In this document: positions 34,824 to 50,527 of the stretch, piece by piece | Position numbering within the stretch: the stretch's first letter is position 1 | Layout: every line of letters starts with the position of its first letter | Assembly: GCF_033723955.1 (NCBI RefSeq) | Contig: NZ_CP137555.1 | Coordinates: 807,001 to 871,000, forward strand | Source of the DNA: Microbulbifer pacificus | Lineage (GTDB): Bacteria; Pseudomonadota; Gammaproteobacteria; Pseudomonadales; Cellvibrionaceae | Direction: 5' to 3' | DNA length: 64,000 bases | The notes under the pieces: generated by a model | What the model saw: the letters and a program-made list of their open reading frames with translations, nothing else | The model's database searches: none | Told to the model about the DNA's origin: nothing | Made by a program: the position numbers and the translations under genes

Positions 34824-34829
34824 TGCCCC

Positions 34830-35050
34830 CGACATCAAGAGAGTGGCTGACGCCAACGCCAACCTGCCTACCGGGGCAAGGTGGTTTCTCTTCACGGAAT
34901 GTACATTTTGCGTACAGCTGTGTAGGGGATGGGGCTCTTGCTGGCAACCGAGAATATCGGCCCAGCTGTGCAATCCAACCGGGATGCGATTTGTTTGCAG
35001 ACAGATCGCCTCTTCCGCCGTCAGCCCTCCACTATTTTTTTGGAGGGAAC
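34830..35050 (+). promoter_or_regulatory. Long structured 5' leader with a sequestered ribosome binding site
   Basis: No gene is seen in this stretch, but it is rich in potential RNA structure. AAGAGA (34837-34842) can pair with TCTCTT (34887-34892), enclosing a stem made by CCAACCTGCC with GGCAAGGTGG. TGTAC/GTACA (34900-34904, 34912-34916) forms a small hairpin. CAGCTG (34915-34920) can pair with CAGCTG (34963-34968) around CCGA/TCGG (34948-34951, 34957-34960). Finally CCCTCCA (35025-35031) pairs perfectly with TGGAGGG (35041-35047), hiding the Shine-Dalgarno site of the next gene. This layout fits a translation-controlling leader or riboswitch, but its ligand is unknown. Confidence 0.5.
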
Positions 35051-37574: not shown

Positions 37575-37629
37575 TGGTTACCGCTGGCTTCGGGGTAAAG
37601 CTCTGAAGCTGGCATTGTGGCGGACAAGC

Positions 37630-37725
37630 GCTGGGTATTCGTTTTCAAAACCGCTGTGAATACATCCCTGTACGCTGCGTCAGCGACGTCCCTGTCGCTG
37701 ACGCTTTTGAAAACGAATCCCCAGC
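37630..37725 (+). repeat. Nested palindromic repeat, copy A
   Basis: The outer arms (37630-37650 and 37705-37725) are complementary at 20 of 21 positions. Between them lie a 26-base core (37651-37676, beginning CCGCTGTGAATACATCC and ending TGTACGCT) and an inner hairpin with an 11-bp stem (37677-37687 and 37694-37704) and loop GTCCCT. The same architecture and core recur at 37816-37909 (opposite strand) and 50316-50424. This copy lies in sense orientation after tdh. Confidence 0.9.
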
Positions 37726-37815
37726 ACTCGCCCTTCAACTCAAAGCTTTGCACTCCGATTTGACCGACTATATTCAAGCTTACGAAGCGCTGTTGCCTGA
37801 TTTTAAGGCTAGGTG

Positions 37816-37909
37816 CCGGGGGAGGCATTTCGAAAGCGTCGCAAACAGGGACGTTTGCGACGCAGCGTACAGGGATGTATTCACAGCGGTTTCGAAATGC
37901 CTCCCCCGG
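37816..37909 (-). repeat. Nested palindromic repeat, copy B (inverted)
   Basis: The outer arms (37816-37835 and 37890-37909) are perfectly complementary over 20 bases. The inner hairpin stem is 37836-37846 with 37853-37863 (11 bp, loop AGGGAC, which reads GTCCCT on the minus strand). The 26-base core at 37864-37889 is the exact reverse complement of the core of copy A, although arms and hairpin stem are of unrelated sequence. On the minus strand it lies downstream of the antiporter gene. Confidence 0.9.
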
Positions 37910-38105
37910 TGGCTGGCCGCCCAAGCTTCAGAACAGAGCACCTCAAAATTCACAGGATTTAAACGAGTGATAAGAGTAATCGGCGTACTCCTCTTCGCCC
38001 TGCTGCTGTTGGCAATCGCAGCTCACCTGTTTTACTCCCGCAAAGCGAGAGAAGAAGAAACCGGATGTTTGCCAACATTTCCCATTCACCACGTCGCAAG
38101 AACCT

Positions 38106-39347
38106 TTACGACTCCATCTTCCGGATCAAGCGCGTACTCGTAGTCCCCTGCACCAGCAGCGAAAACAACACCACGCCGAATACCATCGCCTGCACCGTCG
38201 ACCAGTAAGGCAACTCCGTCGGCAGCGACAGCACCAGCGCCGCTGAAATCACCCCGCGCAATCCACCCCAGCTCAAGATCAACCGCCAGCTGTGAGTGAT
38301 CGGCGGTCCCACATAGCGTGCCAATGGCGCAACCAGAAACACCGCCAGGCCGCGTGCACCGATCGCCGCAACAATGGCGACAATCATCGCCAGCCAGTGC
38401 TGCGCAAACATATCGAATGAAATCACCAGCCCCATGATCACGAAGATCAGTGCGTGAAATAGCAGCCCAAGCCACTCCCAGGTGGGTGCCGCATGGGCGA
38501 GATAGGTTTCCTGTTGTTCCCTTAAGCAGGCGCGGGCAACGATCGCACAGATCATCACCGAGAGAATACCGGACACGCCGACCACGTGTTCCGCCAGGTA
38601 AAAACTGCCGAAGGCCGCCAGCACCAGCACCACCAGTGCCGCGCCCGCAGAGCGGAGAAACAGAATCACGATGGCGGTCAGCAGACCGCAAATAGTCCCC
38701 ACCGCCAGACCGCCGAAGAACACCGCGACGAAATACAGTGCAAAACTGCCCGCACCATTGATCGACTCGCCGGTGGCAACCGCCCCTTCCATGGCGCTGT
38801 GGGTGGCGATGCCGACAACGAGGGAGAACAGCAGTATCGCCAGCGCATCGTTGAACAGGCTCTCCCCTTCCACCAGCGTGAGTAATTCATCATTGGCTCC
38901 GGTCCGGCGCAGGCGGCAAACAATCGCGACCGGATCCGTGGCGGCGAGTATTGAGCCGGTGAGCAGTGCGGCGAGCCAGGGAAAGTCATTGGGCTGGTGC
39001 ACTCCGAAATACACCAGCGCTGCGGTGATCAGGATGCAAATAGGCACGCCCACCATGGCCAGCAGCAGTGCAGGCCCCAGCCAGCGGAACAGGATATCCG
39101 GGTCGATCTTCCACGCGGACTGGAACATCAGTACCGGCAGTATGATGAAAAACACCAGCTGGTGAATATTTTCCGCGCGCAGGCCGGTGTTGTAATCGAA
39201 CACCGGTAGCAGTATTCCAGCGAGCACACCGGCGATCAGACAGCCGAGGGTGTCATCCCGCTTTAGCAGTCGTGCAATGCCGAGTCCCGCGACGGCGGCC
39301 AGGGCCATATACAGCCCCTGCCCTACCAGTGTGGTGACGCCATCCAT
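38106..39347 (-). CDS. CPA1-family sodium/proton antiporter
   Basis: The 413-residue inner-membrane protein has about twelve hydrophobic segments and the CPA1 (NhaP-like) signatures ATDPVAIV and VEGESLFNDALAILLF, which carry the aspartates that exchange cations. LLKRDDTLGCLIAGVLAGILLP and the final RLILSWGGLRGVISAALVLSLP stretch are also typical. It should expel sodium or potassium in exchange for protons, useful in a salty habitat; the ion is not readable from sequence. The ATG at 39347 has GGGAGAG seven bases before it. The start lies 16 bases beyond the stop of the upstream flavoprotein gene, so both are probably in one operon. Confidence 0.88.
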   Translation of the reverse strand: MDGVTTLVGQGLYMALAAVAGLGIARLLKRDDTLGCLIAGVLAGILLPVFDYNTGLRAENIHQLVFFIILPVLMFQSAWKIDPDILFRWLGPALLLAMVGVPICILITAALVYFGVHQPNDFPWLAALLTGSILAATDPVAIVCRLRRTGANDELLTLVEGESLFNDALAILLFSLVVGIATHSAMEGAVATGESINGAGSFALYFVAVFFGGLAVGTICGLLTAIVILFLRSAGAALVVLVLAAFGSFYLAEHVVGVSGILSVMICAIVARACLREQQETYLAHAAPTWEWLGLLFHALIFVIMGLVISFDMFAQHWLAMIVAIVAAIGARGLAVFLVAPLARYVGPPITHSWRLILSWGGLRGVISAALVLSLPTELPYWSTVQAMVFGVVLFSLLVQGTTSTRLIRKMES

Positions 39348-39363
39348 GGTGCTCTCCCGCCCG

Positions 39364-40908
39364 TTAGTTAACACCGCGATCGGAAGCGATCACGGATTTG
39401 GGTTTGACCTCCGGCACAAGTTCATTGAGCGGCATTGGCACGCCGCGTTCGCTGATCACTTCCACGTGGGCGCGGCGCAGCAGGCGCGGTTCCGGCACGC
39501 CACAGGAGTGAGCGATGGTGCCCACCTCGTATTCCATGTTGCGCGCGTAGTGATACACGCGCTCCGCCTTGTCCATCGGATCCAGCCCCTGCTGCAGGTC
39601 GGGATTGTGGGTAGTGACACCGGTGGGACAGGTGTTTTTGTTGCACTGCATCGCCTGGATACAGCCGAGGGCAAACATAAAGCCGCGCCCGCAGTTGACG
39701 AAGTCCGCGCCCATGGCCAGTGCCCAGGCCACCATGGAAGGGGTCAGCAGTTTGCCGGCGCAGATAATCTTGATGCGCTCGCGCAGGCCGTACTGGGTAA
39801 TCAGGTCCACCACCAGGGGCAGGCTGCGGTTCAGTGGCAGGCCCATGTAGTCCATCAGGCTCTGCGGCGCCGCGCCGCTGCCGCCGTCGGCGCTGTCGAT
39901 ATTGATAAAGTCCGGCGCGGATTCGATACCGCGCCGCTGGATCGCTTCGCAAAGGTCGTGCAGCCAATCGCTGACGCCGATCACGCACTTGAAGCCTACG
40001 GGTTTGCCGGTGACCTCGCGGATATGGTTCACCATATCCAGCAGACCATCCACATCGCGGATTTCCGGGTGCCCATTGGGGCTGATGGAATCCATCCCCG
40101 CGGGAATACCGCGCACATGGGCAATTTCCGGCGTGACCTTGATACCCGGCAGTATCCCGCCCTTGCCGGGCTTGGCGCCCTGGGAGAGCTTCAGCTCGAA
40201 CATTTTCACCTGTTCGAGGGCCGCCACTTCTTTCAGTTTTTCGTCCGACAGGTTGCCCTCGGCGTCCCGCACTCCGTATTTGGCGGTGCCGATCTGGAAC
40301 ACGATGTCGCAACCGCCGGACAGGTGATGGGAGGAGAGACCACCTTCACCGGTGTTCATCCAGATACCCGCCTTGGCCGCCCCCTTCGACAGCGCCGTGA
40401 CCGCCGGTACCGACAGCGCGCCGAAACTCATGCCGGAAATATTGAAAATGGAGCGGGTGGTATAGGGCTTGCGGGCCACGCCCTCGCCCAGGGTCACTTC
40501 CCGCGGCGGCACCGCGTCCTTGCTGAGGGTGGGAAACGGGTGATTGAGGAAGACGATGTCGCCGGGCTGGTTGAGCGGCCTGGTGGAACCAAACGCGACG
40601 GTGGAATCCACGTTTTTCGCCGCCCGGTACACCCAACTGCGCTGGGCGCGGTTGAACGGCATCTCCTCACGATCGAGGGAAAAGAAGTACTGGCGAAAAA
40701 ATTCGCCCAGGTGCTCGAACTGGTAGCGGAAACGCCCCAGCACCGGGAAGTTGCGCCGGATCGCCTGTTTGGTCTGGCTCACGTCTGACAGGTACATGTA
40801 GGCGACGTACAGCACCAGCACCACCAGCCCGAAGGCAAACAACATCGAAAACAGCTGCAACACCGTGACCGCAAACCCTTTAATTGCGGCTACTGCCTGA
40901 AGATCCAT
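39364..40908 (-). CDS. FMN-binding glutamate-synthase-like protein with a membrane anchor
   Basis: The 514-residue protein begins with one membrane helix (about residues 15-42) and then carries the FMN-dependent central domain of glutamate synthase (GltB-like): ISGMSFGALSVPAVTALSKGA, NTGEGGLSSHH, ELKLSQGAKPGKGGILPG, NIDSADGGSGAAP. The three cysteines of CIQAMQCNKNTC match the iron-sulfur ligands of the family. It lacks the glutaminase domain and the ammonia tunnel entry, so it is not a complete glutamate synthase; members of this stand-alone family have no settled function. It precedes the antiporter gene by 16 bases in the same direction and is divergent from the radical SAM gene. Confidence 0.85.
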   Translation of the reverse strand: MDLQAVAAIKGFAVTVLQLFSMLFAFGLVVLVLYVAYMYLSDVSQTKQAIRRNFPVLGRFRYQFEHLGEFFRQYFFSLDREEMPFNRAQRSWVYRAAKNVDSTVAFGSTRPLNQPGDIVFLNHPFPTLSKDAVPPREVTLGEGVARKPYTTRSIFNISGMSFGALSVPAVTALSKGAAKAGIWMNTGEGGLSSHHLSGGCDIVFQIGTAKYGVRDAEGNLSDEKLKEVAALEQVKMFELKLSQGAKPGKGGILPGIKVTPEIAHVRGIPAGMDSISPNGHPEIRDVDGLLDMVNHIREVTGKPVGFKCVIGVSDWLHDLCEAIQRRGIESAPDFINIDSADGGSGAAPQSLMDYMGLPLNRSLPLVVDLITQYGLRERIKIICAGKLLTPSMVAWALAMGADFVNCGRGFMFALGCIQAMQCNKNTCPTGVTTHNPDLQQGLDPMDKAERVYHYARNMEYEVGTIAHSCGVPEPRLLRRAHVEVISERGVPMPLNELVPEVKPKSVIASDRGVN

Positions 40909-41011
40909 TCCCTAGCCCCTGTTCTGCTCGTTTAAAAGGCGGAGACCAAAACCGAGCAGTCATTGTATGCGCAGGCTCGCGCTATTGCACACTCCCGCCC
41001 CCGACAATAAA

Positions 41012-41027
41012 CTGTACAAACATACAG
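41012..41027 (+). promoter_or_regulatory. LexA (SOS) box upstream of the radical SAM gene
   Basis: CTGTACAAACATACAG fits the gammaproteobacterial LexA site CTGTATATATATACAG at 13 of 16 positions, including both outer CTGT/ACAG halves. It ends 27 bases before the GTG start at 41055. The P. aeruginosa homologue PA0069 is, to my knowledge, in the LexA regulon, so the site makes sense. Confidence 0.75.
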
Positions 41028-41054
41028 TTACCCAGCCTCCAACAGAGCTTTGCC

Positions 41055-42143
41055 GTGGCCAATGACGCCCCCACCAATCCCACACGCCTGTACAAGGGCC
41101 GCGGCGCCATCAGCAATCTGGCGGGGCGCTTCGTGGATCAGGTCAGCAGCCGCGAGAGCGACGGCTGGGAACTGGAGCTGGAACCGCTGCAACGGATAGA
41201 AACCCTGGCGATCGAGGAGAAGGCGAAATCCATTATCGCCACCAACAATTCCCCGGACATTCCGTTCAGCCAGTCCATCAATGCCTACCGCGGCTGTGAG
41301 CACGGTTGCATCTACTGCTATGCCCGCCCGGCCCACGCCTATATGGACCTGTCACCGGGACTCGATTTTGAAACCAGGCTGTTTTACAAACCCAATGCTT
41401 CTGAGCTGCTGGAACAGGCGCTGCGCAAAAAGGGCTACCAGTGCAGCCCCATCGCCATGGGTACCAATACCGACCCCTACCAGCCGCTGGAAAAAGACAA
41501 GCAGATCACCCGCCAGCTACTGGAAACGCTGCAGCGCCACCGCCACCCGCTGACCATCGTCACCAAGAGCCAGCTGATCCTGCGCGACCTGCCGATCCTC
41601 GCGGAGATGGCCCAGGACAATCTGGTGCACGTGGCCATCAGTGTGACCACACTCGACAATGACCTGAAACGCAAACTGGAACCGCGCACCGCTGGCCCGG
41701 CCGCGCGCCTGCGCACCATCGAGGCGCTGAGCAACGCGGGGATTCCCACCGCGGTGATGGCGGCGCCGATGATTCCCGCGATCAACGATTCAGAACTGGA
41801 GAAGATTCTCACAGGCGCCAGTGACGCCGGCGCCATTCAGGCGGCCTACATCCTGCTGCGCCTGCCGTTTGAGGTGGCACCACTGTTCCGCCAGTGGCTG
41901 GCCGAGCACTACCCGGAGCGGGCGGCCCATGTGATGAGTCTGGTGCAGCAGAGCCGCGGGGGAAAAGACAACCAGAGCGAATTCGGCGAGCGCCAGCGCG
42001 GCACCGGGGTGTTTGCGCAGCTGTTGCGGCAGAGATTCAAGATCCACTGCCGCAAACTGGGGCTGAATGAGAGAAAACTGGCACTGGACTGCAGCCACTT
42101 CACCCTGCCGCCCCAAACGGGGGACCAGCAGAGTCTTTTTTAG
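41055..42143 (+). CDS. PA0069-family radical SAM protein
   Basis: The 362-residue product has the radical SAM cluster motif in INAYRGCEHGCIYCYARP (C-x3-C-x2-C). Family landmarks are YKGRGAISN near the start, SPIAMGTNTDPYQPLEKD, TIVTKSQLILRDLPIL and GTGVFAQLLRQRF near the end. These are shared with spore-photoproduct-lyase-like and PA0069-type proteins, which are proposed to act on DNA, though no reaction is established for this family. The GTG at 41055 is the best start: it precedes the conserved YKGRG by a dozen residues, and a LexA box lies just upstream. An alternative frame extension to 40884 would run through that box. Confidence 0.85.
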   Translation: MANDAPTNPTRLYKGRGAISNLAGRFVDQVSSRESDGWELELEPLQRIETLAIEEKAKSIIATNNSPDIPFSQSINAYRGCEHGCIYCYARPAHAYMDLSPGLDFETRLFYKPNASELLEQALRKKGYQCSPIAMGTNTDPYQPLEKDKQITRQLLETLQRHRHPLTIVTKSQLILRDLPILAEMAQDNLVHVAISVTTLDNDLKRKLEPRTAGPAARLRTIEALSNAGIPTAVMAAPMIPAINDSELEKILTGASDAGAIQAAYILLRLPFEVAPLFRQWLAEHYPERAAHVMSLVQQSRGGKDNQSEFGERQRGTGVFAQLLRQRFKIHCRKLGLNERKLALDCSHFTLPPQTGDQQSLF

Positions 42144-42286
42144 GGAATTTCTGAAAAGCTACTGCGCGTGAGTCTGGCGGCGTCCGGCGGTGCTCAAAAT
42201 GCTCATGTATCAAAAATACATTCCGCTTTCTGCGCTCCGGCAGCCACCGCCAGCCTCCCGCTCGTTACGTTTTTCAGAGATCCCCT
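42142..42286. repeat. 145-bp imperfect palindrome between convergent genes
   Basis: Arms of about 47 bases (from 42142 rightward and from 42286 leftward) are roughly 70 % complementary, with long matched blocks such as TCTGAAAA/TTTTCAGA and CTGGCGG/CCGCCAG. The centre contains a perfect small hairpin ATGTAT-CAAAA-ATACAT (42205-42221). The element starts inside the radical SAM stop codon and ends six bases from the arsH stop, filling the whole gap. It differs from the nested repeats A-C. Confidence 0.75.
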
Positions 42287-42291
42287 AGCAA

Positions 42292-43008
42292 TCACATCGA
42301 GCGCTGATCGATCCGCTTGCGGAATTCCTCGGCACTTTCCTTGCGCTCGGAGTAGCGGTCCACCAGGTAGTCAGCGCGATCGCGCAGCAGCAGAGTGAAC
42401 TTCACCAGCTCTTCCATCACATCCACCACCCGATCGTACAGGGACGATGGCTTCATGCGATCGTTGTCGTCGAACTCCAGCCAGGCCTTGGGTATCGAGG
42501 ACTGGTTGGGGATGGTGAACATCCGCATCCAGCGCCCCAGCACACGCATCTGGTTGACCGCATTGAACGACTGCGAGCCGCCACTGACCTGCATCACCGC
42601 CAGAGTCTTGCCCTGGGTGGGGCGGATGCCCTGTATCGCCAGCGGGATCCAGTCTATCTGCGCCTTCATGATACCGGTCATGGCACCGTGACGCTCCGGG
42701 CTGCACCACACCATGCCGTCACACCACTGGGCCAGCGCGCGAAGCTCCTGCACCTTGGGATGATCCTCTGCTGCATCGTCCGGCAGCGGCAAACCGCTCG
42801 GATTGAAGGTGCGGGTTTCCGCACCAAAGAATTCCAGGATCCGCGCGGCCTCTTCCGCCGCCAGGCGGCTGAACGAGCGCTGTCGCAGGGAGCCATACAG
42901 CAACAGGATTTTAGGCGGTGCCGGTGTCCGCTCGACGGAGAAAAGTTTCTGCTCGTCGATCGGTTGCAGGCATTCGGCATCGATGTTCGGCAAATCGTTC
43001 AAGGACAC
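42292..43008 (-). CDS. arsH: Arsenical resistance flavoprotein ArsH
   Basis: ArsH is an NADPH-dependent FMN oxidoreductase that oxidises trivalent organoarsenicals. The 238-residue protein has the flavodoxin-like fold with [24 protein letters not shown] (FMN phosphate loop), [26 protein letters not shown], and [26 protein letters not shown], all hallmarks of ArsH. It is the last gene of the arsR-arsC-acr3-arsH operon, three bases after the acr3 stop. A 145-bp palindrome follows its stop. Confidence 0.95.
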
Positions 43009-43011
43009 AGC

Positions 43012-44031
43012 TCACTCCTCAAAGTAGTGGCGGGTTTTGTTGGCAAACGCCACCAGGCTCAGCATCACCGGCACTTCCACCAGCACCCCCACCACCGTCG
43101 CCAGTGCGGCACCGGAGTTGAGGCCAAACAGGGAAATGGCCACCGCAACCGCCAGCTCGAAAAAATTCGAAGTGGCGATCATGCAACCCGGCGCGGCGAT
43201 ATTGTGCGGCAGCTTCATCGCACGGGCAGCGCCATAGGAAACCGCAAAAATACCGTAGGTCTGGATCAGCAGCGGAATTGCGATCAGCACAATGGCCAGC
43301 GGTTTGGTGAGAATGGTTTCCGCCTGGAACCCGAACAGCAGCACCACCGTCGCCAACAGGCCGGCAATGGAAATGGGTTTCACGGTTGCCAAGAAGTGGT
43401 TCAGGCGCGAGTGATCCGAGCGTGAGTCCAGATGCGCTCGGGTAAGAATACCGGCAATCAGCGGTATCACCACATACAGCAGCACCGACAGCAACAGCGT
43501 ATCCCAGGGCACCGTCACGTCACTCACACCCAGCAAAAATGCGGCGAGGGGCGCAAACGCAAAAATCATGATGACGTCGTTCACCGACACCTGCACCAGC
43601 GTGTAGTTGGCATCGCCGCGGGTCAGCTGGCTCCACACGAACACCATCGCGGTACACGGGGCGACACCCAGCAGGATCATGCCGGCGATATATTCTGTGG
43701 CCGTCTGCGGGTCCACCAGATCGGCAAAAATCACCCGGAAAAACAACCAGCCGAGGGCCGCCATGGTGAAGGGCTTGACCAGCCAGTTCATCACCAGGGT
43801 GAGGAACAGACCCTTGGGTTTTTTACGGATGTCGCGGATAGAGGAGAAATCCACCTGCACCATCATCGGGTAGATCATCAACCAGATAAAAATCGCCACG
43901 GGGATATTTACATGGGCCACTTCCAGTGAGGCAAACCACTGGAACAATCCCGGGAACACCGTGCCGAGCAGCACACCGGCGACGATGCAAAGCGCCACCC
44001 ATACGGAAAGATACCGTTCAAAAAGGCCCAC
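43012..44031 (-). CDS. acr3: ACR3-family arsenite efflux permease
   Basis: This 339-residue inner-membrane protein with about ten hydrophobic segments expels arsenite. Family motifs are [26 protein letters not shown], the conserved cysteine in [26 protein letters not shown] that is needed for transport, and the C-terminal [16 protein letters not shown]. It belongs to the ACR3 (Bass) family, not the E. coli ArsB family. The gene lies between arsC (two bases) and arsH (three bases), so translation is likely coupled. Confidence 0.95.
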
Positions 44032-44033
44032 GG

Positions 44034-44507
44034 TTATTGCACCTCTGCGATGTTCATCAATTTTTCCTGTAGCGCTTCCCGTGAAAGATCGTTCAGATCC
44101 AGCGACAGCAGCCGTTGCACGCGCCGCTCGATAGTTGTCATCACCGCATAGAACGCATCACGAACCTCTTCTTCGCTGCCGTCCAGTTTAGAGGGATCCG
44201 GCAACCCCCAGTGCACCTTAACGGTATCGCCGAACCACACAGGGCAGGTCTCACTGGCGGCACTGTCGCACACCGTCACCACGATATCCGGCTGATCCAC
44301 TGCAAACGCATCCCAGGACTGGCTGCGCAATCCCGCTGTATCGATTCCCTTTTCCTTGAGGTAACGGAGCGAAAGCGGGTGTACCTCACCACTGGGTTGG
44401 CTGCCCGCGCTGAACGCCTGAATACGCCCCTGCCCCAGGTGATTGGTTATCGCCTCGCTCAGGATGCTGCGGCAGCGATTGTGGGTACAGATATACAGAA
44501 TCTTCAT
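44034..44507 (-). CDS. arsC: Arsenate reductase, low-molecular-weight phosphatase type
   Basis: ArsC reduces arsenate to arsenite for export. The 157-residue protein has the phosphatase-like loop ICTHNRCRS (nucleophile C7, anion-binding R13, C-x5-R-S). Two further cysteines, C80 and C88, in [15 protein letters not shown] form the disulfide relay of thioredoxin-coupled ArsC enzymes, and the DP acid loop is [10 protein letters not shown]. It is therefore the S. aureus pI258 type rather than the glutaredoxin-dependent E. coli type. It follows arsR by 22 bases and precedes acr3 by two. Confidence 0.93.
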
Positions 44508-44529
44508 TCATCCATCTCGTGAGTTGTTT

Positions 44530-44865
44530 TCAGCAACAGGCCGGGCGATCGGGCATCGCCTGGAGGTTATTGCGCAATAAGGTTAATCGCTCGGACTCGG
44601 CATTGGCCGCCGCGTTACACGCGGATGCCGCCCACGCTGGCAGCTGCGGGTGAATGGCGTAGTAGACCCACTGGCCACGCCGGGTATCCTGCAGCAGCCC
44701 GCAGTTGCGCAACTGCGCCAGATGCCGGGAAATCTTCGGCTGGGACTCCCCCAGCGCCGCCACCAGCTCACATACGCACAGCTCGCCCTCCGCCTGCATC
44801 AGCATCACCAGCTGCAGACGGGTCTCGTCCGCCAGACATTTGAACAATTGCACAGGGGTTATCAC
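44530..44865 (-). CDS. arsR: ArsR-family arsenite-responsive repressor
   Basis: ArsR represses the ars operon until arsenite binds. The 111-residue winged-helix protein has FKCLADETRLQLVMLMQAEGELCVCELVAAL with the C30-x-C32 arsenite pair in the recognition-helix region, then SQPKISRHLAQLRNCGLL and RRGQWVYYAI. A C-terminal ACC tail may add ligands. The GTG at 44865 is chosen because GGGAGG lies a few bases upstream; the longer frame to 44970 would cover the operator. The four-gene order arsR-arsC-acr3-arsH is complete. Confidence 0.93.
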   Translation of the reverse strand: MITPVQLFKCLADETRLQLVMLMQAEGELCVCELVAALGESQPKISRHLAQLRNCGLLQDTRRGQWVYYAIHPQLPAWAASACNAAANAESERLTLLRNNLQAMPDRPACC

Positions 44866-44898
44866 ACGGCCTCCCAGGCATCGGGTTGAGTGGCGGGC

Positions 44899-44924
44899 AT
44901 TATATATGGATATGCACATATGTA
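44899..44924 (-). promoter_or_regulatory. Candidate ArsR operator
   Basis: An AT-rich imperfect palindrome (ATATATGGATATGCACATATG is its heart) lies about 35 bases upstream of the arsR start, in an otherwise GC-rich gap. Its position and dyad symmetry suit an ArsR binding site overlapping the promoter. Confidence 0.5.
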
Positions 44925-45001
44925 AATTTAATGGCGCGTTCGTACTGCCCCAGGCTGGTACAATTCGCATTACTGCGATTCCTCCCCAGCAAAGGTGAAA
45001 A

Positions 45002-45283
45002 GTGTCCGACTGGTTTGTCTACCTGATCCGCACCCGCTCCGGCAGTCTCTATACTGGCATCACCCGGGACGTGGCGCGCCGATTCGACGAGCACAGCAGC
45101 GGTGGCCCCAAAGCGGCCAAGGCGCTGCGCGGGCGCGGCCCGCTGAAACTGGAATTCCACCAGGCGGTGGCGGGTAAATCAGAAGCGCTGAAACTGGAGC
45201 TTGCGATCAAGAAATGGCCGAAGGCACGGAAAGAGGCATTGATTGCAGGCCGGTTCGAGCTGCCAATTGACCAACCGGCGTAA
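45002..45283 (+). CDS. GIY-YIG nuclease-domain protein (YhbQ/UPF0213-like)
   Basis: This 93-residue single-domain protein has the GIY-YIG core: WFVYLIRTRSGSLYTGITRDVARRFDEHSSGG, with tyrosines, the catalytic arginine in the VARRF stretch, and a downstream glutamate in LKLELAIKKWPK. Stand-alone members such as E. coli YhbQ have weak DNA nuclease activity in vitro and an unclear role. The GTG at 45002 has AAGGTG five bases upstream. It is read away from the ars operon and toward the convergent glutathionylspermidine-synthase-like gene; an inverted repeat (GGCAGGC/GCCTGCC, 45291-45311) separates them. Confidence 0.9.
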   Translation: MSDWFVYLIRTRSGSLYTGITRDVARRFDEHSSGGPKAAKALRGRGPLKLEFHQAVAGKSEALKLELAIKKWPKARKEALIAGRFELPIDQPA

Positions 45284-45331
45284 GCGGCAGGGCAGGCTTT
45301 TTCCGCCTGCCGTGCTACTTGCTTAACCCCA

Positions 45332-46522
45332 TCAGTCCAGAATGATGTGCGGCAGGAAACGGGAGGAATCCTTGGTAATCAGGGTCGCATCCTCGCGAAT
45401 GCAGATGCCCGCTGCGCTATCGCCCACCACCCAGCTTCCTATCATGGTGTAGGCATCCGCATTGCGATACTCATCGCGGAATTTTGGCAGCGCATGCAAT
45501 GCCTGGCGGATATAGCGCCCATCGGCATAGGGACCGGCCGCGGAAATCTGCTCGCCACCCGTGGTGATCAGGTCCACGTTGGCGCCCTCGCGGGAGAACA
45601 GGGGTTTGCGCACCCAGCCGGCCGCCATCGGCTCACTGCTGGCGGTTTCAAAAAACGCGGGCAGCAAGTTGGGGTGATCGGGGTAGCGCGCCCACAGCAG
45701 CGGCAGAATGCCCTTGTTGGACAACAGCATTTTCCACGCGGGCTCGACCATCTGGGTATTACCGTCGGTAACGGCGCGGGCAAATTCTTCCTGCACCATG
45801 AATTCCCAGGGATACAGTTTGAACAGCCCTCTTATTGGCTCGCCGTCCATGTCGACAAACTGTTGACTCCCGTCTTTTGCATCACCAATAACGCCGATAT
45901 CTTCCAGCGCGATATAGCGCACATTCTTTCCTGCCTGCGCAGCGATATCCATCAGATAATTGACGGTGCCGCGGTCTTCGGCGTTGTCACGTACGCTGGT
46001 GAAATAGAACGGGGTCGGTAATTCCAGCTGGATAAACGCCTGCTCGATCTTGTCCTGCAGGGAATTAAACTGATCCGCACGTCCGGGCAAGACGCCGTTG
46101 CGGATCTGGTCTTCCAGCCAGACCCACTGGAAAAAACCGGTTTCAAACAGCGATGTCGGGGTGTCGTAATTGAGTTCGAGCAGTTTCGCCGGGCCAGTGC
46201 CGTCGTACACCAGATCCATACGGCCGTACAGATGCGGTTCGCCACTATTCCAGGAGTTCCACACATAGCTCCAGTAATCCCGCGGGATATTGAGCTGGGT
46301 GAGCATCTCTTCGCTGCGGGTGATATCCCCCACCATATCCATCACCATCTGGTGCAGCTCTTCGGTGGGTGCCTCCAGATCTTCCTCAATCTGCTGCAGA
46401 CTGAATTGGTAATAGGCGGTTTCATCCCAGTAGGGCTCACCGTCGAAGGTGTGGAAATCGAACCCGACTTCTTCCGCATAGTCGCGCCAGTTAGCGCGCT
46501 CGGTAATATTGATGCGCTGCAC
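45332..46522 (-). CDS. Glutathionylspermidine-synthase-like ATP-grasp ligase (YgiC/YjfC family)
   Basis: The 396-residue protein corresponds to the C-terminal synthetase half of E. coli Gss without the amidase half. Features are the N-terminal YWDETAYYQFSLQQIEEDLE, MDLVYDGTGPAKLLELNYDTPTSL, KLYPWEFMVQEEF and WKMLLSNKGILPLLWARYPDHPNLLPAFF, ending with MIGSWVVGDSAAGICIREDATLITKDSSRFLPHI. It should activate a peptide carboxylate with ATP and join it to an amine, but the YgiC/YjfC family lacks proven glutathionylspermidine activity. It is the last gene of a three-gene unit after DUF350 and DUF1190 genes, starting three bases after the latter, matching the yjfL-yjfM-yjfC part of E. coli. Confidence 0.87.
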   Translation of the reverse strand: MQRINITERANWRDYAEEVGFDFHTFDGEPYWDETAYYQFSLQQIEEDLEAPTEELHQMVMDMVGDITRSEEMLTQLNIPRDYWSYVWNSWNSGEPHLYGRMDLVYDGTGPAKLLELNYDTPTSLFETGFFQWVWLEDQIRNGVLPGRADQFNSLQDKIEQAFIQLELPTPFYFTSVRDNAEDRGTVNYLMDIAAQAGKNVRYIALEDIGVIGDAKDGSQQFVDMDGEPIRGLFKLYPWEFMVQEEFARAVTDGNTQMVEPAWKMLLSNKGILPLLWARYPDHPNLLPAFFETASSEPMAAGWVRKPLFSREGANVDLITTGGEQISAAGPYADGRYIRQALHALPKFRDEYRNADAYTMIGSWVVGDSAAGICIREDATLITKDSSRFLPHIILD

Positions 46523-46525
46523 GGG

Positions 46526-47122
46526 TTAGCTGCCAAAACTGCTGCGCGTGGCCGCCTGCTGCCCGAAACCACCGCGGCGCACCAACCTGCCGGCCTGGGG
46601 TTGAACCTGCGAAGGCTTGAAGGAGACGGGACCAACACCTTTCGCCACCGGTCTGTTGGTGGCGGTACGGAACGTATTGCGGTCATCACGGGATTTATAC
46701 AGGGGCTGCGTAGGCACGCTGCTGCCCGCACCGGCGGCGGTGGGTTGCTGCATATTCGCTCCCCCCGGTTGCTGCGTATTCGCCCCCCCGCGATTCATCA
46801 TCTGTCCGGCGAGATACCCCATCATCATCGGCATAAAGAAACTGCCACCGGAGGCGGTCTGCTGCGGCGCGGTCTCACACTTGCCCTCACCGAAATCCGC
46901 TTCGCACTCTTGCTTGTTTACGTATTTCGGCGCGACCTGCGGATGCAATGCCTTGGCCGCGGCGAAGTCGGCTTCGCACTGCTCTGTGCTATTCCAGCCG
47001 CCGGCACTGCACTCATCCGGATTGCTGTACACCATGCCCTGCACTTCTTTTTCACAACCGGCAATCAGTAGTGTGGCGACAGGAACCGTCAATACCAGAG
47101 CGGCTTTTTTACTGCGTTTCAT
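46526..47122 (-). CDS. DUF1190 lipoprotein (YjfM/YgiB-like)
   Basis: The 198-residue product has a lipoprotein signal with lipobox LIAGC (Cys23). A cysteine-containing repeated region follows (YSNPDECSAGGWNSTEQCEADF and NKQECEADFGEGKC), then a methionine/glycine-rich stretch (MPMMMGYLAGQMMN) and a flexible Gly/Gln/Arg-rich tail ending SSFGS. This is the DUF1190 pattern. The function is unknown; its constant partnership with a DUF350 membrane protein and a YjfC-type ATP-grasp ligase suggests it could be a substrate or scaffold of the ligase. It lies 19 bases after the DUF350 gene. Confidence 0.88.
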   Translation of the reverse strand: MKRSKKAALVLTVPVATLLIAGCEKEVQGMVYSNPDECSAGGWNSTEQCEADFAAAKALHPQVAPKYVNKQECEADFGEGKCETAPQQTASGGSFFMPMMMGYLAGQMMNRGGANTQQPGGANMQQPTAAGAGSSVPTQPLYKSRDDRNTFRTATNRPVAKGVGPVSFKPSQVQPQAGRLVRRGGFGQQAATRSSFGS

Positions 47123-47141
47123 CGTTTGCTTCCTGTAAAAA

Positions 47142-47555
47142 TTAATAGCTCATACATGCGGCGTTGATCAGACCGACCGCGATGGCGACCGTAGCGGCAA
47201 AAATGCCGGAGGCCATCTCACCGTTGTCGATGCGTTCGGACAGTTGTTTAAGCACCATTCGCAACACCACAAACGTGAGGGCCTGGACAATCAGTGCAAC
47301 AGCACCCCAGACGGCGCAATCCAGCAGGGACAGGGAATTGGTAATGGCGCTGGATAGCGGCAAGGCAAAACCGATAATCGCCCCGCCAAACGCCAACGCC
47401 GCCGCGGAATTGTTCGCGCGGATCAATGCCATCTCTGCGTGCGGCGTCATCCACGTATAAATACGCACAAAGATAAGCACCAGGACTATCGCCACGGCGA
47501 AATAGGCCAGGAAAGGGGGAATACCGTTTAACGATGACAGTGTAGTGGCAAGCAT
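47142..47555 (-). CDS. DUF350 inner-membrane protein (YjfL-like)
   Basis: The 137-residue protein has four hydrophobic helices (around FLAYFAVAIVLVLIFVRIYTW, ALAFGGAIIGFALPLSSA, AVWGAVALIVQALTFVVLRMV, GIFAATVAIAVGLINAACMSY), as in DUF350/YjfL proteins, which form two repeats of a two-helix unit. The ATG at 47555 has AAGGA seven bases upstream and is preferred over the track-length start at 47585. It is the first gene of the three-gene DUF350-DUF1190-ATP-grasp unit. The E. coli equivalents sit in a larger locus with a PspA relative that is not seen here. Confidence 0.88.
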   Translation of the reverse strand: MLATTLSSLNGIPPFLAYFAVAIVLVLIFVRIYTWMTPHAEMALIRANNSAAALAFGGAIIGFALPLSSAITNSLSLLDCAVWGAVALIVQALTFVVLRMVLKQLSERIDNGEMASGIFAATVAIAVGLINAACMSY

Positions 47556-47703
47556 GACCGAGTCCTTGATGAGGTAAGCAGGCAATAGCGAATAAAAAAA
47601 CCGCCGGATTCTGACATAAAACAGGGGGTGGCTCTATCTGGCGATCCCTGCTGATACAATGCGCGCCACAGCCGTCCTCCCCCCACCCTACACAAGGTAC
47701 CCC

Positions 47704-48477
47704 ATGGAACTTACCCTCACCCTGCTTCTGGTGTTGTTTGCCGTCGCCATGCTGGCGGGCTGGGTGGATACGCTCGCCGGCGGCGGCGGATTGTTGACCC
47801 TGCCGGCACTGCTGCTGACGGGTGTGCCGCCGGTAACGGCGCTGGCGACCAACAAAAGCCAGGCGGTCATCGGTACCCTGACCGCAACCGCCACCCTGTT
47901 TGCCAAGGGGCACCTGCGCGAGCGCAAGCTGATCCTGCCGGTTGCCACCGCAGCACTCGGTGCGGCGCTGGGTACCTGGTTGATCCAGCGCGTCGACACC
48001 AGCTGGCTCAGCTGGGTAATCCCGGTTCTGCTGCTCGGTGTGGCCCTGTATGTCTGGCTGACGCCGCACATGGGCAAAAGTGACAGTCACCCCAGATTGA
48101 GTGAAAAGCAGTGGGCGTGTACCTGTGCCCCGACGGTCGGGTTTTATGACGGCGCCTTCGGGCCGGGTACCGGTACCTTTTTCGCCGCCGCGGGAGTGGC
48201 CTTTCGCGGCCAGACACTGCTGACCGCCACCATTCGCGCAAAGCTGTTCAACCTGACCACCAATGTGGTTTCCGTTGCGCTGTTTGCCGCCGCGGGCAAG
48301 GTAATCTGGACCATCGCCGCCACCATGATGGCGGGACAGGTCATCGGGGCCTTTATCGGCAGCCACACCATGCTCGCGGGCGGCACCCGGCTGATACGCC
48401 CGCTGGTGATCACCATGTGTGTGCTGATGTCCGTGAGCCAGATCGCCCAGCACCTGAATCTGTTGAATCTGTCCTAA
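47704..48477 (+). CDS. TSUP-family transporter (YfcA-like)
   Basis: The 257-residue inner-membrane protein has about eight hydrophobic segments and the two-repeat layout of the TauE/SafE (TSUP) family. The glycine-rich opening reads WVDTLAGGGGLLTLPALLLTGVPPVTALATNK, and the second repeat reads GFYDGAFGPGTGTFFAAAGVAFRG with KLFNLTTN. The group includes exporters of sulfite, sulfoacetate and other organic sulfur anions, but the substrate of YfcA-like members is not known. The ATG at 47704 with AAGG upstream is preferred over 47659. It is divergent from the DUF350 operon. Confidence 0.88.
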   Translation: MELTLTLLLVLFAVAMLAGWVDTLAGGGGLLTLPALLLTGVPPVTALATNKSQAVIGTLTATATLFAKGHLRERKLILPVATAALGAALGTWLIQRVDTSWLSWVIPVLLLGVALYVWLTPHMGKSDSHPRLSEKQWACTCAPTVGFYDGAFGPGTGTFFAAAGVAFRGQTLLTATIRAKLFNLTTNVVSVALFAAAGKVIWTIAATMMAGQVIGAFIGSHTMLAGGTRLIRPLVITMCVLMSVSQIAQHLNLLNLS

Positions 48478-48573
48478 CCGGCAGACCATCCTCTGGTATT
48501 GAGAATCACGCCGGGCATAGCCCCGCCGCTGGTGGTATTCTTGCGCGCTCGACAGAAAACTAACTGAAACCCT

Positions 48574-48894
48574 ATGTATTACTCACTTGGCGACTTGTTC
48601 TGGCTGTTCCTGCTGATCCTGGCAGCCTGGTATTTCTGGGCCGGCATGGCTGCCAAGGACCGGGTGCGCCGCATCGTTAAGGCGCACTGTGCCGAGACCG
48701 GGGTCCAGCTGCTGGACGATACCGTAATGCTGGTGCGCACCCGTCTGAAGCGGGACAAAAGCGGCCAGGTGCGGCTGCTGCGCCAGTACGAATTTGAGTT
48801 CACCTCCACCGGCGAGCGCCGCTACAGCGGCATTGCGGTGTTGCACGGGCAGCGGGTCAACCAGATCCAGCTGTCGCCCTTTCATATGGCCTGA
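48574..48894 (+). CDS. DUF3301 small membrane-anchored protein
   Basis: The 106-residue product has one N-terminal membrane helix (LFWLFLLILAAWYFWAGMAAKD) and a soluble basic domain with CAETGVQLLDDTVMLVRTRLKR and YEFEFTSTGERRYSGIAVLHGQRVNQIQLSPF, which is the DUF3301 pattern seen across Gammaproteobacteria. No function is known. It is followed after 55 bases by a DUF1653 gene in the same direction. Confidence 0.85.
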   Translation: MYYSLGDLFWLFLLILAAWYFWAGMAAKDRVRRIVKAHCAETGVQLLDDTVMLVRTRLKRDKSGQVRLLRQYEFEFTSTGERRYSGIAVLHGQRVNQIQLSPFHMA

Positions 48895-48949
48895 CCACCG
48901 TGCATCTGGCCTGACTTTTCCCTTCAGGAATACCCATCCAGGAACATCC

Positions 48950-49162
48950 ATGCAGAAAGGCATATACCGTCACTACAAAGGCAACCTTTACCATTTGCTG
49001 GAAATCGCCACCCACTCTGAAACCGGGGAACAATTGGCGATCTATCGCGCTCTGTATGATGATTTCGGCGTATGGGCGCGCCCGCTGGCGATGTTCGCAG
49101 AAACCGTCGAAAAAGACGGGGTGATCGTGCCCCGTTTCGCGCTGGAAAAGCCGCTTAACTGA
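48950..49162 (+). CDS. DUF1653 small protein
   Basis: The 70-residue protein opens with KGIYRHYKGNLYHLLEIATHSETGEQLAIYRALY, the classic DUF1653 sequence, and ends with a short acidic strand and hydrophobic tail (VIVPRFALEKPLN). It is a small beta-rich domain of unknown role. The ATG at 48950 has AGGA six bases upstream; the frame is open further upstream but without a start that respects the family. It lies between DUF3301 and a Rossmann reductase gene in the same direction. Confidence 0.88.
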   Translation: MQKGIYRHYKGNLYHLLEIATHSETGEQLAIYRALYDDFGVWARPLAMFAETVEKDGVIVPRFALEKPLN

Positions 49163-49227
49163 ATCCCCCTATACAAACTCGGTTCCGGTACAACAAGGTC
49201 CCAGAGACCACACAATAAGGACAACAG

Positions 49228-50295
49228 GTGAACAACAAGCAGATCCTGATTTACGGCGCCTACGGCTATACCGGGGAATTGATTGCCCGCAAGGCGGTGG
49301 CCCGGGGCCTGAAACCCATTCTGTCCGGTCGCAGTGCGGCAAAGCTGCAGCCGCTGGCCAATGAGCTGGGGCTCGCCGCTATCGCCATCAGTCTCGACGA
49401 CGAAGACGTGCTGGCGCGAACCCTGCGGGATGTGGCGGTGGTCATCCACTGTGCCGGCCCCTTCTCCGCCACCGCAGAACCGATGATGCGCGCCTGCATC
49501 AAAAGCGGTACCCATTACCAGGACATCACCGGAGAGATGGCGGTGTACCAGCAGGCGCATGCGCTGGATGCAGAGGCGAAAGCCGCAGGGGTGGTGCTCT
49601 GCCCCGGTACCGGTTTTGATGTGATCCCCACCGACTGCCTGGCGATGGCACTGCACAAGGCCATGACCAGCGCCACCCACCTGACCCTGGGGTTCGACTC
49701 CGACTCGGGACTCAGTCCGGGCACCGCCAAGACGTCCATCGAGAGCCTGGGCGTGGGCGGCGCGGTGCGCCGCAACGGCAAGATCGAGGTGATTCCCCAC
49801 GGCGAACTGACGCGCAAGATCAACTTCGGCCGCGGTGAAAAGTTTGCCGTGGCCATCCCTTGGGGCGACGTGGCCACCGCCTACTACTCCACCGAGATCC
49901 CGAATATCGAGGTCTACATACCCATGAGTCCGCGGCGGGCGAAAAAAATGCAGGGGCTGAACAAGTTTCGCTGGCTGCTGCGCATGCAGTGGATGCAGAA
50001 GTGGCTGAAAGGCAAGGTGGACAAGAGTGTGCGCGGGCCGACCGAGAACCAGCGCGCCGAGCAGAAAACCTGGGTGTGGGGCGAGGTGCGCAACGACCGC
50101 CGCGGCGAGCGCCGGGTGGGCCGCGTGGTCACGGCCAACGGTTACGATGTGACCGTGTACGGCTCACTGGCGGTCATGGAGTACCTGCTCGATTACAAGG
50201 GCGAGGGCGGCTATTTCACCCCATCAAAACTCTGCGGTCACCAGCTGGTGGAAAAACTGCCGGGCTCCGGTGCCATCAAGATCGGAATTGATTAA
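49228..50295 (+). CDS. Saccharopine-dehydrogenase-like NAD(P)-binding protein
   Basis: The 355-residue protein has a Rossmann N-terminus (ILIYGAYGYTGELIARKAVARG), the family segment VIHCAGPFSATAEPMMRACIKSGTHYQDITGE, and LCPGTGFDVIPTDCLA. These place it with the saccharopine dehydrogenase/trans-acting enoyl reductase group, members of which act on lipid or amino-acid substrates. Lysine degradation is not implied. The GTG at 49228 has AAGGA upstream. A nested palindromic repeat begins 21 bases after its stop. Confidence 0.82.
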   Translation: MNNKQILIYGAYGYTGELIARKAVARGLKPILSGRSAAKLQPLANELGLAAIAISLDDEDVLARTLRDVAVVIHCAGPFSATAEPMMRACIKSGTHYQDITGEMAVYQQAHALDAEAKAAGVVLCPGTGFDVIPTDCLAMALHKAMTSATHLTLGFDSDSGLSPGTAKTSIESLGVGGAVRRNGKIEVIPHGELTRKINFGRGEKFAVAIPWGDVATAYYSTEIPNIEVYIPMSPRRAKKMQGLNKFRWLLRMQWMQKWLKGKVDKSVRGPTENQRAEQKTWVWGEVRNDRRGERRVGRVVTANGYDVTVYGSLAVMEYLLDYKGEGGYFTPSKLCGHQLVEKLPGSGAIKIGID

Positions 50296-50315
50296 GCCCG
50301 AGTGTGTTCCCTGGC

Positions 50316-50424
50316 GGCAAGGCGCCAGGGCGAGCACTTCGAATCGCTGTAAATACATCCATGTACGCTCCGTCGGCGACGTCCTGTCGCCGACGGTTCG
50401 AATTACTCGCCCTGGCACCTTGCC
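50316..50424 (+). repeat. Nested palindromic repeat, copy C
   Basis: The outer arms (50316-50343 and 50397-50424) are complementary at 25 of 28 positions. The core (50344-50369) matches the core of copies A and B at 23 of 26 positions. The inner 11-bp stem (50370-50380 with 50386-50396) has loop GTCCT. Arms and stem sequences are unrelated to those of A and B. It lies in sense orientation right after the Rossmann reductase gene. Confidence 0.9.
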
Positions 50425-50527
50425 TTCGCCCAGAACTATCGACACTTAAGCACCCCCAAAATAAGATTTCACGGATCTGACACATTTCGGTCAAGTCCGC
50501 GCAACATTGGCTTCGTACTTTTAGGGC

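What the first reader, a model, noticed from the sequence alone, without database searches (positions are those of the whole stretch)
37630..50424. A family of nested palindromic repeats with a fixed core and freely varying, self-complementary arms
Three copies (37630-37725, 37816-37909 inverted, 50316-50424) share one plan: outer arm, 26-base core, 11-bp hairpin with loop GTCC(C)T, complementary outer arm. The core is identical in A and B and 23/26 in C. The outer arms (21, 20 and 28 bases) and hairpin stems have unrelated sequences in each copy yet remain 20/21, 20/20 and 25/28 complementary outside and 11/11 inside. This covariation means the secondary structure is maintained while the sequence is not. 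A simple REP or MITE would keep its arm sequence. It may be a selected RNA or DNA cruciform element around a protein- or RNA-binding core, or a mobile element that copies its arms from its target.
Basis: seen in the sequence. Interest (0 to 1): 0.78.

Follow-up and report, generated by a model that had tools for sequence, protein, structure and literature searches.

The report
Dispersed repeats with paired CsrA-type hairpins
The three odd palindromes belong to a repeat family with about a hundred copies in this marine bacterium; one DNA strand of each copy folds into a structure showing two loops that look like docking sites for the global regulator CsrA, so the repeats may be scattered CsrA-binding RNAs rather than plain palindromes.

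Summary
A, B and C belong to an interspersed family in a Microbulbifer genome: 99 places found in 4.19 Mb, with model matches in 37 of 91 sampled genera of the order. The 'core' is itself a hairpin (H1); with the inner hairpin (H2) it sits on a long outer stem, a three-way junction. Stems vary but stay paired. On that strand both loops read A(N)GGAN in 226 of 243 copies, the CsrA/RsmE motif. All 26 exact CsrA SELEX-consensus sites in the genome lie in these repeats. Rfam's TwoAYGGAY motif (RF01731), already proposed in print to bind CsrA, aligns to six copies on that strand, below its cut-off. Copies lie mostly behind genes, often as inverted pairs that can flip between species. Best reading: a TwoAYGGAY-like repeat family acting as dispersed CsrA-binding RNA. 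Structure and strand are shown; transcription and CsrA binding are inferred. Random orientation relative to genes is the main objection.

The parts
37616..37739 (-). Element A (model span).
   Evidence: R1 match on + 130.3 bits; fold of the - strand -68.9 kcal/mol, z -9.6
37630..37650 (.). A: outer arm, side 1
   Evidence: 20 of 21 pairs with 37705-37725
37661..37672 (-). A: hairpin H1; - strand reads UACA-GGGA-UGUA, exact CsrA SELEX consensus with flanks
   Evidence: G000:844662-844673
37677..37704 (-). A: hairpin H2, 11 bp, - strand loop AGGGAC
   Evidence: sequence; fold
37705..37725 (.). A: outer arm, side 2
37801..37924 (+). Element B (model span), inverted to A, 61 nt behind it; strand inferred to work is '+'
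   Evidence: R1 match on - 133.8 bits; fold of the + strand -77.5 kcal/mol, z -8.5
37836..37863 (+). B: hairpin H2, + strand loop AGGGAC
   Evidence: sequence
37868..37879 (+). B: hairpin H1; + strand carries the exact CsrA SELEX consensus
   Evidence: G000:844867-844878
37816..37835 (.). B: outer arm, one side (pairs 20/20 with 37890-37909)
37890..37909 (.). B: outer arm, other side
50310..50430 (-). Element C (model span); strand inferred to work is '-'
   Evidence: R1 match on + 110.6 bits; fold of the - strand -82.0 kcal/mol, z -10.65
50316..50343 (.). C: outer arm, side 1 (25 of 28 pairs with 50397-50424)
50354..50365 (-). C: hairpin H1; - strand loop AUGGAU
   Evidence: sequence
50370..50396 (-). 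C: hairpin H2, 11 bp, - strand five-base loop AGGAC
   Evidence: sequence
50397..50424 (.). C: outer arm, side 2

Best explanation
A, B and C are copies of an interspersed repeat, mostly lying behind genes, related in plan to the TwoAYGGAY RNA motif. Shown: folding of one strand (the GGA strand) is what is conserved, as a long variable stem carrying two hairpins with A(N)GGAN loops, usually 20-21 nt apart. Inferred: when transcribed, a copy is bound by a CsrA dimer bridging the two loops; the roughly hundred copies together hold or buffer CsrA, and single copies could tether it to ends of transcripts. The stems need only pair, so they drift; loops and junction are what is kept.
For: 99 places in G000. 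Loops A(N)GGAN: H1 238, H2 231, both 226 of 243. RTACARGGATGT: 26 sites in all of G000, all 26 inside elements and on the GGA strand; reversed pattern 0. Stem mispairs A.C:G.T (H1 left out) 67:7, 33:1, 44:9 in G000, G001, G034; same direction in three gene contexts and in 8 of 8 chromosome-quarter/orientation bins; both where the ortholog has G-C (62:12) and A-T (22:2). GGA strand more stable in 182 of 219 copies. RF01731: 6 of 6 hits in G000 are elements on the GGA strand. Canonical CsrA in G000. RsmE ANGGAN hexaloop and CsrA bridging range 10-63 nt from PMC7652899 (passages). Least-changed orthologs: 12 double Watson-Crick changes against 0.4 expected.
Against: No transcript or binding data. 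Orientation to genes is random: of 99 places 29 tandem gaps carry the GGA strand in the upstream message and 29 the other strand, so lone antisense copies get no GGA RNA by read-through; the wobble skew is as strong in those (23:2). No promoter above chance in the A/B gap. H1 itself shows G.T 41 against A.C 1, 38 of them at the loop-flanking pair. The conserved junction (UUCACRGCG on the GGA strand) is not needed for CsrA. Only 89 of 243 copies carry the exact SELEX consensus. The SELEX enrichment is not independent of how the family was first found.
Confidence: 0.5

Rival explanations
1. A REP/BIME-like mobile element: the GGA strand folds as single-stranded DNA and is the substrate of a transposase or recombinase; loops and junction are its recognition site, and the likeness to CsrA sites is coincidence.
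For: Random orientation, inverted pairs only (14 tail to tail, 4 head to head, 0 direct), flips or member exchange in 9 of 34 pair comparisons, module exchange, sites without the element in relatives. G.T wobble on one strand is also expected for folded single-stranded DNA.
Against: No Y1 (REP-type) transposase over the cut-off in G000 (one hit, 22.3 bits against 23; G001 has 3 and G034 2 over it, up to 49 bits). Many copies sit at orthologous positions in three species and in the least-changed ones the structure is kept with 3.2% change per side, more than a dead insertion would show.
Confidence: 0.25
2. A 3'-end element of messages in either direction: terminator, exonuclease block or boundary between convergent genes, acting through a stable stem.
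For: 29 of 99 places in convergent gaps and 58 in tandem gaps against 3 in divergent gaps. In L075 the site of A/B holds a hairpin followed by a T run instead (by eye).
Against: No T run follows the stem of A or B; terminator-like matches in the gap are at chance (1 found, 0.9 expected; other copies not scanned). Does not explain the loops or the strand skew.
Confidence: 0.13
3. A self-maintaining DNA palindrome: arms are kept complementary by intrastrand template switching (quasipalindrome correction), without selection for RNA.
For: Double changes exceed single ones over 111 ortholog pairs (741 against 219).
Against: Predicts no strand skew independent of genome orientation and no loop conservation. 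Flips and exchange account for part of the double changes, so 741:219 overstates in-place change.
Confidence: 0.08

Closest known systems
TwoAYGGAY RNA motif (Rfam RF01731, clan CL00106; listed in PMC2864571; CsrA binding proposed in PMC4333381)
   Same: Two hairpins with GGA hexaloops on a junction closed by a poorly conserved outer stem; model aligns over its full length to copies on the GGA strand.
   Different: Copies of this genome score below the cut-off (best 42.5 against 43); second loop base is mostly G, not C/U (strict AYGGAY 44 and 24 of 243); about a hundred dispersed copies, often in inverted pairs.
CsrB/RsmZ-type CsrA-sequestering sRNAs
   Same: GGA-loop hairpins that fit the CsrA/RsmE motif.
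   Different: Those are dedicated genes with many sites; here two sites per copy and about a hundred places, no promoter known.
REP/BIME elements (recalled)
   Same: Intergenic, palindromic, inverted pairs, mostly behind genes.
   Different: Stem sequence not conserved, two-hairpin junction, no REP-type transposase over the cut-off in G000.
Ysr224 (Rfam RF02770, Yersinia)
   Different: Far below its cut-off of 70, opposite strand, different upstream part.

Membership tests
TwoAYGGAY (RF01731) | Score at or above the curated cut-off of 43 bits | tested here: not met
   Window: none at gathering; A/B none up to E 10; best in G000 42.5. Met by 3 places in G086, another genus of the order.
TwoAYGGAY (RF01731) | Two terminal loops AYGGAY | tested here: inconclusive
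   A(N)GGAN in both loops 226 of 243; strict AYGGAY only 44 (H1) and 24 (H2)
TwoAYGGAY (RF01731) | Full-length structural alignment on the GGA strand | tested here: met
   6 of 6 hits at E 0.01 in G000 are elements, GGA strand, model 1-168
CsrA-binding RNA | ANGGAN loops in hairpins, two sites at bridging distance | tested here: met
   20-21 nt in 67 and 13 nt in 19 of 86 copies that the pattern could measure, of 101 rows
CsrA-binding RNA | Binds CsrA; is transcribed | not testable with these tools
   needs RNA-seq and binding assays
CsrB/RsmZ sRNA | Match to the family model | tested here: not met
   RF00166: no match over the cut-off in 3 genomes, and weak hits at other places; at this E-value 8 of 14 control genomes ring too. 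RF00018, RF00195 not searched genome-wide.
REP/BIME (RAYT-linked) | Y1 transposase in the genome | tested here: not met
   G000: one hit, 22.3 bits, under the cut-off of 23
REP/BIME (RAYT-linked) | Inverted pairs | tested here: met
   18 of 18 neighbour pairs under 150 nt inverted
Intrinsic terminator | GC stem directly followed by a T run | tested here: not met
   A/B gap only; other copies not scanned

The most novel reading that the evidence does not exclude
Many genomes of this order carry a CsrA antenna: of the order of a hundred scattered copies of a two-site CsrA-binding RNA repeat behind genes. Together they set the free CsrA level and couple it to transcription all over the genome, a decentralised counterpart of CsrB/RsmZ that spread and rearranged like a mobile element.
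Probability: 0.3. Interest if true: 0.85.

Novelty: new variant of a known kind. Interest (0 to 1): 0.62.

Why it matters
RF01731 has no tested function that I found. This family gives it a plentiful natural data set, a strand assignment that does not rest on annotation, and a host with one canonical csrA. If the repeats bind CsrA, models in which a few dedicated sRNAs control CsrA availability need a large distributed sink. If they do not, a dispersed repeat that carries every copy of the CsrA consensus in a genome is a warning for CsrA target prediction. The wobble-skew test is a cheap way to find the working strand of structured repeats.

Tried and rejected
Arms copied from the target: rejected, because orthologous sites with matching flanks hold different arms. 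Sites without the element exist: at C, 28 of 29 other genomes' loci have no model match and one (L166) has one (the gap in L155 shows no such arm by eye); at A/B, L073 and L075 have none in the gap, L074 has other genes there (L073 has a copy elsewhere).

Simple in-place compensation for all differences: rejected in part once I saw that inverted pairs flip or exchange members. The first ortholog counts (637 double cells, 741) are inflated by this; the conservative figure is, whose pairs were themselves chosen for having few doubles.

Mutational strand bias as cause of the A.C excess: not supported. Phage or plasmid origin: no match to the A/B region at E 1e-5. Own promoter: one promoter-like match in the A/B gap against 0.4 expected. 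RsmZ-type decoy: nothing over the cut-off.

Literature: searches listed no paper that I recognised as describing this repeat or tying a dispersed repeat to CsrA; only open-licence papers are held, most hits were not opened, supplements were not readable. Seen: passages of PMC7652899, PMC9788540, PMC2864571, PMC4333381, PMC11701678, PMC9029176, PMC3791407; outline and section 11 of PMC2267715; listings for the rest. REP, BIME, RAYT and quasipalindrome correction are recalled.

The gene finder is a home-made codon score. A1 left out five copies of the held G000/G001 loci (three with inserts, one normal copy beside one of them, one of another subtype).
Full report
WHAT IS THERE. The window lies in G000, a 4.19-Mb one-contig genome. 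The 341-aa protein encoded before A is 96% identical to one of Microbulbifer sp. HZ11, so the genome is from that genus or very near. A 23-base core pattern occurs 21 times in G000. A 20-base version occurs 22 times in G000, 38 in G001 and 22 in G005; 8 of the 19 genomes searched have it, all of the genus, none of the six from other families.

AN UNBIASED CENSUS. Because a core search biases conservation, I built a covariance model (R1) from 39 copies of G000 and G001. In G000 only 150 of 2194 candidates were scored; they gave 95 distinct places. A local search of held stretches added rows; without two overlapping rows there are 99 places, 93 of them at 70 bits or more, the lowest 45. Core variants now appear (TACGTCCC, CCCATCCCTGGG, CCCATCCATGGG), so hairpin 1 covaries too (TACA/TGTA against CCCA/TGGG). 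Of 145 genomes of the order, 51 match at E 1e-5, in 37 of 91 genera, with 24 candidates scored per genome. Copies from other genera keep the plan with unrelated arms, and 6 of the 10 loci read hold two inverted copies.

ANATOMY. In A1 96.0% of 1637 cells pair and 29 of 42 pairs have a change on both sides; 0 of 500 shuffles reach the number of double-changed cells, and sliding the register by 1-3 columns drops pairing to 35-44%.

WHICH STRAND WORKS. With H1 left out: 67:7 in G000, 33:1 in G001, 44:9 in G034. The skew holds in tandem-sense (23:2), tandem-antisense (26:2) and convergent (15:2) contexts and in 8 of 8 bins of chromosome quarter and orientation, some with few counts. It holds both where the ortholog has G-C (62 against 12) and where it has A-T (22 against 2), which one-sided cytosine deamination would not give. 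The GGA strand is predicted more stable in 182 of 219 copies of at most 135 nt (mean -78.7 against -73.8 kcal/mol). A recurring CA/CA mismatch in the outer stem is a tandem G-U on that strand; the motif CACYGG...CCRGCAC is in 34 of 101 rows. Against this, H1 has G.T 41 and A.C 1, of which 38 are the loop-flanking pair; if the loop is a hexaloop, that pair does not exist.

WHAT THE LOOPS SAY. On the GGA strand H1 is A(N)GGAN in 238 and H2 in 231 of 243 copies, both in 226 (five-base AGGAN loops are counted). RsmE structures show an ANGGAN hexaloop, and CsrA bridges two sites 10-63 nt apart with an optimum above 18 (PMC7652899, passages). Of 101 rows, 86 could be measured: 67 have 20-21 nt between the GGA triplets, 19 have 13. 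The SELEX consensus is RUACARGGAUGU. RTACARGGATGT occurs 26 times in all of G000; all 26 lie inside elements on the GGA strand, and the reversed pattern occurs 0 times. G002 and G003, which lack the core pattern, have 3 sites each. This enrichment is partly a restatement of the core; what is not built in is that the core equals the consensus, and that loops of other subfamilies keep GGA. G000 has one csrA, whose product matches CsrA/RsmA structures (1vpz_A, E 5.1e-30; RsmE 2jpp_A, 1.3e-23). Binding is untested.

RELATION TO KNOWN FAMILIES. At gathering thresholds Rfam finds only a SAM riboswitch elsewhere in the window. At relaxed thresholds RF01731 (TwoAYGGAY) aligns full length to elements on the GGA strand; in L308, another genus, one copy has 45.6 bits, above the cut-off of 43. 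G000 has 6 hits at E 0.01, all elements on the GGA strand, best 42.5 bits; A, B and C are not among them. So the window's copies fail the curated test, yet have the same kind of structure. PMC4333381 (passage) proposes that TwoAYGGAY binds CsrA; that idea is not mine.

PLACEMENT. Copies avoid divergent gaps but show no strand preference, the main difficulty for a read-through RNA. The 18 neighbour pairs within 150 nt are all inverted, 14 tail to tail and 4 head to head.

EVOLUTION. Many copies are at orthologous positions in G000, G001 and G034, with flanks mostly 80-93% identical in the rows shown. Of 115 reciprocal pairs 112 were compared: stems 82.7%, unpaired positions 91.2% identical. Over 111 pairs with model alignments there are 741 double Watson-Crick changes and 219 single changes. 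This is not all in-place compensation: in 9 of 34 inverted-pair comparisons the members match better when swapped, among them A/B against G034 (24 doubles direct, 8 swapped), so pairs flip or exchange members. Elsewhere H1 and H2 change as blocks while the arms stay (pairs 18/179, 102/226, 117/223). In the 33 least-changed pairs (at most one double each) there are 12 Watson-Crick doubles against 0.4 expected, 51 singles (20 wobble on the GGA strand, 7 on the other, 21 other mismatches, 3 with both states unpaired) and 3.2% change per side. There the structure is being kept.

JUDGEMENT. Existence, copy number, architecture and strand skew are computed results. That the GGA strand works as RNA rather than single-stranded DNA, that CsrA binds it, and that this buffers CsrA are inferences. 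I put about one half on the CsrA-binding RNA reading; mobile single-stranded DNA is the strongest rival. Unexplained: the conserved junction UUCACRGCG, and why tandem copies ignore gene direction.

Noticed in passing
window 34827-34961 (+): SAM-I/IV riboswitch, 43.7 bits against a cut-off of 41.1.
   Followed up: no
G000 places 2565523, 283613, 1680274; G001 loci L033, L034: A second G+C-rich palindromic module (GGCCCGGCCGC...GCGGCGCC...GGCC) sits inside the loop of H2.
   Followed up: no
G000 places 2128195 and 2884120: Inserts of roughly 80 nt inside H1 that contain GTTAGGC...GCCTAAC, which recalls attC boxes (recalled, not tested).
   Followed up: no
G000 places 2554906, 2562413, 3487373, 3747816 and others: A subtype in which CGCTGTG before H1 is replaced by a GGGCTAGGCGCCCC hairpin.
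   Followed up: no
G005 loci L053-L072: Another Microbulbifer genome has a subtype with nearly constant arms and ends TTACTA...TAGTA, as after a recent burst; it also has 9 csrA-family genes and 11 Y1-transposase hits.
   Followed up: no
L170, L175, L177, L179, gap orthologous to C: Unrelated long palindromic repeats (GCCCCGCTACCGG...CCGGTAGCGGGGC in L177) occupy the gap in other genomes.
   Followed up: no
window 37616-37924 against L233 of G034: The A/B inverted pair appears flipped between the two species, or has exchanged members.
   Followed up: partly
Rfam RF02770: Ysr224, listed among the 20 most prevalent sRNAs in PMC9029176 (passages), seems to include a relative of this repeat; its high count may reflect a repeat.
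   Followed up: partly
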